Shown: piece after piece, positions 3,901 to 63,500 of the stretch
Layout: the number at the start of each line of letters is the position of its first letter
Numbering within the stretch: position 1 is the stretch's first letter
NCBI GenBank assembly: GCA_009746045.1
Contig: RPFO01000213.1
Span: forward strand, 4,326,411-4,390,410
Length of the DNA: 64,000 nt
Source of the DNA: Mesostigma viride
Lineage: Eukaryota; Streptophyta; Mesostigmatophyceae; Mesostigmatales; Mesostigmataceae
Direction: 5' to 3'
The notes under the pieces: model-generated
Told to the model about the DNA's origin: nothing
Databases searched by the model: none
Seen by the model: the letters and a program-made list of their open reading frames with translations, nothing else
Program-made: the position numbers and the translations under genes

Positions 3901-6900
3901 TCGCAATCCTCGTTTTGAGAGGTACAGCATAGATAGGGCGCAGCAGGCACGCTGGTTTCACGAGAACAACCAGAGATGTTAGCGGGTAGGGAGCAGCAAC
4001 CAGGTCGGGGGCAGGGTAGATGGGCTGGTGGTGCCGAGAAAAAGCGTTCGCGAGTTTGGGCGCGGAGTTCAACGGTAACGCGCAAATCGCAGAGTGACAC
4101 TTGTCCACCCATCGGTGATCAATGCCATCACGCTGGGTGACGGAAAGAGAGAGGAGGGAGGCCGAGCGTCTGTCAAGAAAAGAGCACCTGCATCCATGCC
4201 TTGAGTACTCGGTGACCCCCAGGCCTCCCCCCCCTGTGCTTATAATCTGCATAGCATAGAATCCATATACTGGTAGAGCTTTTTCACAATATAGCTAATT
4301 AAAATATATTATGGGTATTCCGCACAATAATTACAGCAAACGCTACCTGTGCAGAATCTGCAGGTCATGCAGGATGGCCGTGACGATGACGTACAGACCC
4401 TTGTGGAACTGTCCCGAAGAGTAGAGGTCTCTCGCCTGGACGAGGGGCACGGGCGCCGATGGCATGCACACTATCAATTTTTACTTTTATCAAAAAGTAA
4501 AGACACACATACATTGCGCGATCCAACACTAGGTGTAATTCATTCATGTCACAGGCCTATCATCTGGCGAGGGGCAAGGGCGCAGATAAAAGATAGAGGC
4601 ATAGGGATGCGTGAATAGCAGTAGGTGCATAGAGTACATCATACTGATGCATGGACGCCAGTATGTACATAGACTACACGCATACACATGCACGGACACA
4701 CACCACGCCTGGACATGCGACCATCCTCGCCCTCCCCACACGCCCGCCACCCTCGCCCACGCCCCAACCACCTAGTGCAAAGTCACCCACCCTACCACAA
4801 ACCGCCACAACCTCCTTACCTGGAAGAACACGTACCAGACTCCACGCACCTGCACAAACAAACACGCCCTAGCTCACCCACCTGGGCAAACACGCCCACC
4901 CACGAACGTCACCCACCATCCAACCAACCCGCCCACCTGCGCAACATGTGACATGGTCCCTACTGAGTCCAAACTGCGCGCCCACGCCCACACAGCCCCC
5001 TTACCTACGCCGACACGCCCACGTGACCCTCACCTGCGCCCTAATTCCTATCAGTCCCCACCCGCGCAAACCCGCCCAACCATCCTTTACTGGCGCAAAC
5101 GCGCCCATGTGCCCCCATACTACCCCCCACCATCCTTTACTGGCGTAAACGCGCCCATGTGCCCCCATACTACCCCCCACCATCCTTTACTGGCGCAAAC
5201 GCGCCCATGTGCCCCCATACTACCCCCCACCATCCTTTACTGGCGCAAACGCGCCCATGTGCACCCATACTACCCCCCACCCTTGGGCCTGCACCATGAT
5301 GCAAAGAGAGTAATCTGTGGCCTGCCCACTTGTGCCAGTGAGAAAAGCTAGTGCAAGATAGTCGAGGGCCACTGCCTCCTTCTCGTTCTGTATAAGGGTC
5401 AAATGTTCCTTTACTGCTACATGCTCACGTGACGCAGTCCACCTGAGTATCAATAATTAGTTAGTTCATAAATTTCCCCCCCACCCCACCCACAGATGCG
5501 TAAACGCATCCATCTGCACAAACACTGTCGACATTCCCCGCCCCCCCCCGCCCCCCCCACCTGCGCGAACACGCCTGAGCGCATAGACTCGCGCTGCAGC
5601 AGCGGGTGCAGCTGCGACGCGGCCGCGGGGTCCAGCCGCTGCAGCAGCGCCAGCGTGTCCTCTCCCGGCTCCAGCAACCCTTCCATCGACGCATCCGGCT
5701 CAAACACGCCCTCCGCCATGTACTTGGCGAGGAAGAGGGACTCGTAGGTGAGCGCGAGCAGCTGAAGCTCCTTCTCGGGCGCCATCGACTCGGGGGAGGC
5801 CTGCAGCGTCCCTGCAAGGTAGGACAGCTGCGACGCCAGGCGCTCGGCCGTCGGGGTCCCCTGCAGGAGGGGAGTAGGGGAGTAGGGAAGGTGGGGAGGG
5901 GTGGAGGGGTGGAGGGGTGGAGGGGTGGAGGGATGGAGGGGGGGGGGGGGGAGGCGATATTGAGAAGCTGCAAAGGGATCGGTGGAGCGACGTGGACAAG
6001 CGGCAGAGAGTATGACTTCCCATTCTGGTTTATGACTTGACTTCCCATTCTGGTTTATGACTTGACTTTCCATTCTGGCTTATGACTTGACTTCCCATTC
6101 TGGTTTATGACTTGACTTTCCATTCTGGTTTTAGATGGATGCGGAATCGAGGGCGGGGGCAAGATCGCGCAGCGTGAGGGGAAGGAAAATAGGGTACGCA
6201 GCGTCTACGGATCCGTGGCCGTGACGCACACCAGCACAAACAAAGCGCACGAGCACGCAAGACAATGCACACTGAGCCCCCTCGTCCCCTTTGTCGTGAG
6301 CATATGCTGTGCGGGAACAAGACGGCACCTCATTGGTGGGCAAGAGAATGGCAACATGACGGCATTTCTTGACAACCTCTGACTACCCTGCTCGGATGGC
6401 ATTCACCTATTACTGCCCCACCTCCTCTACAGCCATCACCTACTCAATGGCCACCCGTACTACCCTCCCGAATTCACTGCCCCCCTCGCACCGTGCTCCC
6501 CTACACTGTTTCAAATCCTACCCTAATCCCTACACCCCAACCCACCCGCGCCGCGCTCACCTCCGACCTCCCCGCTTGTACGTGCGGCAGCAGTGACACA
6601 CGCGCAGCAAGCGCCTGGAGCAACCCGGCCGCCTCGTCCCAGGCCCGCCGCTCCCACGCGCCACGCAGTTTGGGCATGAAGCCGTATGCCGTTCCGGGGG
6701 GGCGCTTGGCCGCTAGCGACGCCAGGGACCAGGCGTCGCCGCTGGGGTCGCCGACGCCACCCTGGCCAGGGCGGGCCTTCTTGCTGCCTCGCGTCGATGA
6801 GGGGGGCGCTCGTCGAGGTGCGGCGCGCGGCAGCATGGTGTCCTCGGTGGCTCGGTTCGCAAAGGGGGACGAGGGACGTGCCTGGGTGGGGGCACTGTGT

Positions 6901-60500: not shown

Positions 60501-63500
60501 TAACTACAAAGGAATAAGCATCTCCCAACGAATACAAATACTAGTGTAAAACAAGAGCGTGCGGATACCACCCACCCACCTGGATACACCTGAACGTTCG
60601 CCACCAGGTTGGTCTCGCCCGCCTGCGGCACCGTGATCGTGAGGTGCAGCGCAAACTGGCCGGCCACCGTCGTGTTGATGACCAGCTGGTAGGCGTTGCT
60701 GGGCGTGCGCTGGACCAAGGGGATGGGGACCAGCGTGGTGGCCGGCTTGATGGTCACCACCAGGCCGTTGAGCTGGCTGCTGCCCGCTGGGATGTCCACG
60801 CCTGCCACGACCAAATGAAAGAAAAAAAGCCGCCAAAAAAGAAAAAGAGCCGCCGAAAAAGAGTGGGGAGGATGGCACGTGGTTGTGATGTGAGTGTGGC
60901 TTCCGTATTCCTGTGGTGCTTTGTCAGTGCTTGGTCCGTGCTTGGTTCGTGCTTGGTCAGAGCTTGGTCAGTGCTTGGTCAGTGCTTGGTCAGAGCTTGG
61001 TCAGAGCTTGGTCAGAGCTTGGTCAGAGCTTGGTCAGAGCTTGGTCAGAGCTTGGTCAGAGCTTGGTCAGAGCTTGGTCAGTGCTTGGTCAGAGCTTGGT
61101 CAGAGCTTGGTCAGAGCTTGGTCAGAGCTTGGTCAGTGCTTGGCCAGTGCTTGGTCAGTGCTTGGTCAGAGCTTGGTCAGAGCTTGGTCAGAGCTTGGTC
61201 AGTGCTTGGCCAGTGCTTGGTCAGTGCTTGGTCAGTGCTTGGTCAGTGCTTGGTCAGTGCTTGGTCAGTGGTAGGTGCTGGTGGGTATGATCCTTGGCCA
61301 GCGGTAGGTGCTGATTTCACTCGCATAACAATGCCAACCTTTGCACAATAGGAATGCAGCCTGCCTCTGCATATACTGCGATCACACGGACCCAATGCAC
61401 TAAACCCCACGCGCCACCCCCCTGGAACCCCATTACGATCTAGAAGAGTGATGGAGGTGTCATCAACTTCTTCCTCAACTCCCAGCTCCGCACTGTTCCT
61501 GTTGTTGAACTGCAAAAACAAGTGCAAAAACACGATGCACGAACCCCCCCCCCCCCCCCCCCCCCCCCCCCCCCCCCCCCCGTTCCCCCTCCTGTAACCC
61601 CCAACACACAGTCCCAGTCAAACAGCCCCCAACGCGCAAGTCCAGTGACACAAAATCCCAACGCACCGTTCCGGTCGCGGAACTGCACAAAGAGCTCCTG
61701 CGGGTGCCCCGCGAGCGCCCACACGCCTGTCGCGCTTCCTGCGGCCGCCACGTACGAGCTCATCAGCTCCCCTTGCGCGTCCACGAGTGCCGACTGCGAC
61801 CCTTGGAGCGTCAGCAGCGAAGAATAGACCGTGAGCGTGCGCGGGGCACCCCCCACGAGGACCTCGGGGCCGCCCGGCTCGTCCGCCGCAAACACGACCC
61901 TCATCTGGACAGTGTACGATTCGCTCCCGGTCGGCCTGGGCGCCACGTACGAGACGCGGATGCGGCCGGAGCCGTCGGAGAGTGCCGTGGGCGGGTCGAC
62001 CGCAAAGGTGGTTCCACCGATGATTGACGGGGTGAAAGAGACCGAGAGCCGTGACGCGAGGGCATCAGCGTCCGTTCCCCCCCCACCGCCGCCGCTGCTA
62101 TCACCAGATGACGGCAGTAACCGGTTCCCAAAGACATCGCGGGGGAACACGAGGAAGGAACTGCTGGCGCCCGCGACCACCGCCGCCGCGCCCGCCCCCG
62201 TGATCTTACTTGCGGGGCCGTCCACCGCCCCCCCGCCGTTCCCAGGGAACACGACCGAGGACGAGTAGGGGATGCGAAGCGGCCGCTGGAGGAGCGGCTG
62301 CGGGGCGCCGGTCAAACCATCGCGCAGCGTGACGTTCACCCACAGGGTCCCTGGCATGGTCGGCGTGAAGGAGACCAGGTAGTCGGCCCGTCGGCGCTGA
62401 CGCGGCGGGTCAGGGTGATCCCTCCCCGTCCAGATGGCAGCGTCTCGTCACCCGTCAACGTCATGGCAGCCACGGGGGCACGATGCCCCGCGTGGACGCG
62501 TACGCGAGAGGGATGATGGTCAGGCGGATGGACGAGGGGACAGGTCGCCCTCCCTGGAGCGAAGGTTGCCGAACCTGTGCGGGAGCAACGGAAGTGTCAC
62601 GGGTGGGTGTGCCAGCAGGATAAATGGGTGTTTTACAATGGGGCAGCGTTAGCTTAAGATTTATGTGGAAAAGAACTTCCCCATGGCAAGGTGAGTGATG
62701 TGAGCTGCAGCGATTGGTGGGTGATGTGACCTGCTGTTACTTTTTCTTCAGCCCATGCGCTCGAAGGCAGTTTACGTGGACCATGCGTGCCGTCATCACC
62801 GCCGCCACTAGCCCTGCTGCCACCGCGCGGCAGGCACGCAAGGAGAAGCAACGGAGTGGGAGCAGGCGAGCCCCTTGGTGGATCCCTCGAGCACACTCCC
62901 TTGAGAACACTATGGCTCCGCAAGGCAAGCCCTTGAGCGCATGCCACAATTCCTTTCGCACCTTCTTTGGGTTGTACATGAGAACGACACGCACATCACG
63001 CTACAAAACGGTAGATCTCCTCGCAACGTTCACTGCCTGTCCTAAGCAACCTGACCCATTTCCTTGCAAGCCTGGTGCCACATCCTCGCCAAACCATTCC
63101 TCAGAGTGACCCCACCCCTGCCCACAGTGACCCCCTACCGGTCCACAGTCACCCCCTACCGGTCCATATTGACCAGCCCACCTGTCCACGGTGACCAACC
63201 CACCTGTCCACAGTGACCAACCCACCTGTCCACAGTGACCACCGAGAACGAGGACCCCTCGCCCACGCGGTAGCTGCTCGCGAGCCCCGCAATAAACGAC
63301 CGCGCGGCGTCCACCCCTGATGGCACCACGTTGACACCCAGCGCTGCGCGGGGGTCGGCCCGCGCCGCCTCCCTGTCCTCCACCGTAGCCCCGACGGGCA
63401 CCCAGAATGCGACAAGCGTCACCAACTGGGCCGCCTCGCTGGAGAACGTGGCCGCGTGGAGCCCCTGCGGCGTGCACGTGACGTCCGAGAGCACGGAGCC

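What the first reader, a model, noticed from the sequence alone, without database searches (positions are those of the whole stretch)
4347..63240. Introns grow by repeated copying of their own 5' splice junction
In at least a dozen introns of three genes the sequence that spans the exon end and the donor is repeated inside the intron. The period is about 22-120 bp, often with GT kept in place. The clearest cases follow the exons ending at 19937, 23801, 21022, 5561, 43978, 46186, 52906, 55598, 59614 and 63226. The genes and exons are unrelated in sequence, so the shared property is position relative to the splice site. This suggests a species-wide process (slippage, R-loop or break repair at donors, or reverse splicing) that seeds minisatellites at donors. 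Each array also offers alternative donors.
Basis: seen in the sequence. Interest (0 to 1): 0.86.

Follow-up and report, generated by a model that had tools for sequence, protein, structure and literature searches.

The report
Splice junctions copied inside introns
In this unnamed 440-million-base genome, short stretches that straddle the edge of a protein-coding piece are often repeated next door inside the intron, at both intron ends; the same kind of repeat is known from lancelets, and here the spacing of the copies looks set by the rules the cell uses to choose splice sites.

Summary
Three window genes with continuous frames (29 introns; two genes are paralogues) carry extra copies of their own exon-donor junction. 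But donors are not clearly special. In other genes of the genome (48 predicted introns), copies occur at 10/44 donors and 11/43 acceptors, against 0/92 exon-internal windows and 0/87 inverted copies. Those rates are about twice each intron's interior, near expectation once the conserved exon side is allowed for; a modest donor excess remains in the window and in the pooled data. The ends differ in spacing: acceptor copies lie farther out (median 108 vs 57 bp in the listed hits; automated scan, MWU 0.0036). AG is depleted upstream of acceptors to about -60 to -100; GT after donors is not. Best reading: mirage-type minisatellites (known from amphioxus) made by frequent local duplication, filtered by selection on exons and by splice-site choice. 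Reverse splicing, introners and selected spare donors find no support. New are the pervasiveness, the occurrence at both ends, and a 3' spacing limit beside an unusually long AG-poor zone.

The parts
42586..63350 (-). Gene 3 (REJ/Filamin membrane protein), exons 1-20 as modelled, 19 introns; start not defined
   Evidence: frame continuity; Pfam REJ E 1.4e-26, Filamin E 1.6e-14
1000..6836 (-). Gene 1, 7 exons as modelled (the 30-nt exon 4849-4820 is doubtful)
   Evidence: frame continuity
19632..27203 (+). Gene 2, paralogue of gene 1, 5 exons as modelled; first exon(s) not found
   Evidence: 61% aa identity with gene 1
63105..63243 (-). Donor-spanning array at exon end 63226, period 22
   Evidence: (z 11)
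61470..61691 (-). Donor junction 61667 and copies at +57 and +173 of the intron
59505..59622 (-). Donor junction 59614 with copies at +29, +58, +87
55390..55610 (-). Donor junction 55598 with copies at +78 and +195
52604..52911 (-). Donor-spanning 23-bp array at exon end 52906 (13.4 units)
   Evidence: (z 17)
47530..47683 (-). Donor junction 47666 with copies at +82 and +119
46108..46203 (-). Donor-spanning array at exon end 46186 (copies +37, +69)
   Evidence: (z 17)
45415..45499 (-). Donor-spanning 35-bp array at exon end 45491
43862..43985 (-). Donor-spanning 38-bp array at exon end 43978
19926..20420 (+). Donor junction 19937 and seven listed degenerate copies (+51 to +455)
20986..21127 (+). 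Donor junction 21022 and copy at +99 (36 exonic bases copied)
23799..23950 (+). Donor-spanning 47-bp array at exon end 23801
4870..5576 (-). Donor junction 5561 with degenerate copies and a 50-bp array; fails the shuffle test
3668..3790 (-). Acceptor junction 3689 and junction-spanning copy 87 bp upstream in the intron
2960..3090 (-). Acceptor junction 2978 and copy 94 bp upstream in the intron
4424..4590 (-). Acceptor junction 4435 and copy 128 bp upstream in the intron
20760..20975 (+). Acceptor junction 20949 and copy 172 bp upstream
23430..23640 (+). Acceptor junction 23619 and copies 86 and 165 bp upstream (weaker ones listed farther up)

Best explanation
These are mirage-type minisatellites: local, direct-orientation duplications whose unit happens to straddle an exon-intron junction. 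The genome duplicates short stretches (nearest-copy spacing about 20-280 bp) at a high rate and largely without regard to position. Duplications wholly inside exons should be purged because they break the protein (inferred). One spanning a donor is tolerated at almost any unit length if the original, 5'-most donor still works. One spanning an acceptor puts an extra AG upstream of the real one, so it is mostly tolerated only when that AG lies beyond the zone between branch point and acceptor, where the spliceosome takes the first AG. The conserved exon side keeps such copies recognisable about 1.5 times longer than purely intronic repeats. Shown here: copies at both ends, direct orientation only, exon-internal windows not copied into the intron, spacing asymmetry, AG-poor zone. 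Inferred: that duplication is replication slippage or unequal exchange, that selection through splicing causes the spacing, and that splicing still uses the original sites.
For: Other genes of the genome: donors 10/44, acceptors 11/43, exon-internal 0/92, inverted 0/87 at z>4. Pooled with the window: donor 22/72, acceptor 16/71, exon-internal 0/142. Outside the window, with the interior rate times the simulated anchor factor (1.55 and 1.53), expected 8.2 donors and 7.7 acceptors, seen 10 (P 0.27) and 11 (P 0.086). Donor copies carry 3-84 exonic bases, acceptor copies 11-52, so edges are not junction-exact. Nearest-copy spacing of listed hits: donors median 57, acceptors 108 bp, MWU 7.7e-5 pooled (23 vs 16), 0.015 outside the window (11 vs 11). 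Automated scan: MWU 0.0036 all (21 vs 18), 0.009 outside the window (10 vs 11); within 84 bp 13/21 vs 2/18, Fisher 0.0024, outside the window 5/10 vs 0/11, 0.012. AG obs/exp upstream of 76 acceptors 0.21, 0.26, 0.48, 0.63, 0.78 per 20 nt from -4 to -103, 0.81 to -123, then about 1; GT after donors 0.92-0.98.
Against: A donor excess remains after the anchor correction in the window (12 vs 6.5, P 0.004 at z>4; 0.03 and 0.10 at z>3 and 5) and pooled (22 vs 14.7, P 0.009; 0.04 and 0.04). Homology fills at least 0.8 of the lag in 14/23 donor but only 3/16 acceptor cases, and random lags at the same donors reach 1.75 at the 95th percentile, so this is weak proof of tandem units. Some acceptor copies are short and near-perfect beside unrelated spacer (32 bp at 97%, lag 87), which tandem duplication plus point decay does not easily give. 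The 84-bp cut was set after seeing the data; at 60 bp the automated test gives 8/21 vs 2/18, Fisher 0.074, and in the window alone spacing is not significant (MWU 0.17, Fisher 0.14). Against GA as control the AG depletion ends at about -63, short of the 85-bp floor. Out-of-window introns come from my own gene finder, trained on the window genes.
Confidence: 0.68

Rival explanations
1. Donor-specific seeding: something at 5' splice sites, such as an R-loop or slippage at G-rich donors, starts arrays there.
For: Window donors 12/28 vs acceptors 5/28; gene 3 alone 9/19 vs 0/19. The donor excess survives the anchor correction in the window and pooled (P 0.004 and 0.009 at z>4). The first 60 nt of window introns are G-rich (about 34% G vs 19% C).
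Against: Not replicated in other genes (10/44 vs 11/43). Introns with and without arrays have the same G content at the donor (0.337 vs 0.345).
Confidence: 0.14
2. Templated insertion during break repair (end joining with local template copying, or short-range gene conversion from the exon edge) pastes short junction pieces into the intron; not tandem duplication.
For: Most acceptor copies are short blocks beside unrelated spacer (13/16 with block/lag below 0.8); some are 94-97% identical.
Against: No inverted copies in 87 junctions, whereas local template copying is recalled (no call) to give both orientations. Several donor arrays are plain tandem repeats by TRF.
Confidence: 0.15
3. Copies are kept as functional decoy or alternative splice sites.
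For: Several copies have a donor motif equal to the authentic one. A region with the junction copy is shared by the paralogues at the GWPWGC exon (126 bp at 70%).
Against: GT in copies is no better conserved than flanks (33/41 at both bases). In 3 of the 14 donors examined the read-through frame stops within 6 nt. The shared stretch adjoins an exon start identical by eye at DNA level, which suggests gene conversion.
Confidence: 0.05
4. Introner-type or reverse-splicing insertions.
For: Position next to splice sites only.
Against: No sequence shared between window introns apart from one paralogue pair; copy edges not junction-exact.
Confidence: 0.02

Closest known systems
Mirages: minisatellite-like tandem duplications of exon-intron boundaries in amphioxus genes (globins BflGb6 and BflGb9, Adh3, PGBD5; PMC3087553 and PMC3902484, passages seen)
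   Same: Tandem repeats spanning a boundary, at 5' and at 3' ends; units 10-160 bp in globins and Adh3; many units carry AG/GT.
   Different: There described gene by gene, with RT-PCR (globins) suggesting normal splicing; here in an unnamed 440-Mb genome (window about 56% GC), in 16/29 window and 17/48 other sampled introns, with a spacing difference between the two ends.
Intron gain by tandem duplication of AGGT or boundary segments (Rogers model; potato RdRp case PMC4974935, abstract seen)
   Same: Duplication crossing an intron-exon boundary that supplies splice signals.
   Different: Here copies sit near the original junction and, by the models, stay intronic; no gained intron was demonstrated.
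AG exclusion zones and distant branch points in human introns (PMC1431707, passages seen)
   Same: First AG after the branch point is used, so AG is excluded in between.
   Different: There 838 of 67,334 introns have zones of at least 100 nt; here 34 of the 76 values printed (my count; definitions nearly alike).

Membership tests
Amphioxus-type mirages | Direct repeats whose unit spans an exon-intron boundary | tested here: met
   donor 22/72, acceptor 16/71 junctions, exon-internal 0/142
Amphioxus-type mirages | Occurs at both 5' and 3' boundaries | tested here: met
   10/44 and 11/43
Amphioxus-type mirages | Tandem (head-to-tail) arrangement | tested here: inconclusive
   TRF finds donor-spanning arrays; 14/23 donor but 3/16 acceptor cases with block/lag >= 0.8, random-lag 95th percentile 1.75
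Amphioxus-type mirages | Normal splicing despite duplicated signals | not testable with these tools
   no RNA data
Amphioxus-type mirages | Copy-number instability between haplotypes | not testable with these tools
   one assembly only
Introners | Sequence family shared among introns | tested here: not met
   among the 29 window introns only one paralogue pair shares intron sequence
Rogers-type intron gain | Exon tail repeated at the far (3') end of the intron, lag near intron length | tested here: not met
   donor nearest lags 22-173 bp; gene 1 intron 2, beside the doubtful 30-nt exon, is a possible exception (copy at +679 of 711)

The most novel reading that the evidence does not exclude
In this lineage introns are continually extended by copying of their own exon edges at both ends, and splice-site choice writes the rule: 5' copies may sit at any distance, 3' copies only beyond an unusually long AG-poor zone. 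The resulting reservoir of AG|GT junction copies could feed new exons and introns.
Probability: 0.4. Interest if true: 0.72.

Novelty: new variant of a known kind. Interest (0 to 1): 0.55.

Why it matters
The papers I saw describe boundary-spanning minisatellites in a handful of amphioxus genes. A genome where 33 of 77 sampled introns carry at least one copied junction makes two questions testable: how introns lengthen, and how the spliceosome picks one site among several near-identical ones. The 3' spacing limit together with the AG-poor zone would be a natural experiment on branch-point scanning outside model organisms.

Tried and rejected
Low-complexity chance matches: rejected by shuffles and by masking of short-period arrays. 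Without masking, interior repeats cover so much intron that the donor excess shrinks (11 vs 6.4 expected, P 0.016).

Repeat edges at the junction as a sign of reverse splicing: edges are spread. A first tandem-block script aligned sequence to itself trivially and was discarded; one search failed on a file name and was redone.

Random 20-kb blocks for replication gave only 8 introns in 200 kb, part of which reads N. Among them 1 donor and no acceptor hit, plus one exon-internal hit. They are left out of the pooled counts, as is one spurious window donor (22140). In the hand-listed spacing test one donor hit (L030, 5152) had no spanning copy and fell out.

Taxon: not settled. One 26%-identical protein for gene 1's last exon; none for gene 3 exon 19 or an L028 exon; no relative in viral contigs of gene 3 exon 19 or of the retroelement.

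Literature: the listings of the searches showed me no report of boundary-spanning repeats in a unicellular eukaryote. The library holds open-licence papers only, one search listed 15 of 217, and the original Adh3 paper is not held.

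Full report
Gene models. Three genes could be read from the window. Gene 3 (minus, 63350-42586 as modelled) has 20 exons joined in one frame; its only internal stops are two in exon 2, which looks frameshifted. Its product matches REJ and Filamin profiles. Gene 1 (minus, 6836-1000) and gene 2 (plus, 19632-27203) are paralogues, 61% identical over 509 aligned residues with 55% identity at 171 fourfold sites. Together they give 29 introns, all with GT donors. No transcript data were available.

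Noticed in passing
acceptors of genes 1-3 and of L022-L035: Unusually long AG-free stretches upstream of acceptors (median 91.5 nt to the first AG; depletion beyond composition to about -60 to -100), suggesting distant branch points as a general habit.
   Followed up: partly
10592-15130 (+): Open 1512-aa frame with reverse transcriptase and endonuclease domains, a LINE-type retroelement.
   Followed up: partly
29529-30152 and 37345-37969: Two nearly identical stretches (by eye) that look like retroelement remnants; other remnant-like reading frames sit in the last intron of gene 2 (about 23980-24460).
   Followed up: no
50850-51290 and 34660-35290: Stretches that look by eye like fold-back elements with long inverted arms, perhaps small non-autonomous transposons.
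   Followed up: no
2931-2978 and 23619-23666: The start of the GWPWGC exon is identical by eye between paralogues although fourfold sites overall are only 55% identical: a likely gene-conversion patch that may include the adjoining intron end.
   Followed up: partly
62574-62380 (-): Frame breaks in gene 3 exon 2 in a GC-rich stretch: sequencing indels or a damaged allele.
   Followed up: no
introns of genes 1-3 and L022-L035: Introns are strongly skewed: G-rich over the first 90 nt, pyrimidine-rich over the last 100 nt.
   Followed up: partly
4820-4849 (-): Possible 30-nt exon whose acceptor lies among degenerate copies of the preceding donor; gene 2's model has no such separate exon. If real it could be an exon born from junction copies.
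   Followed up: no
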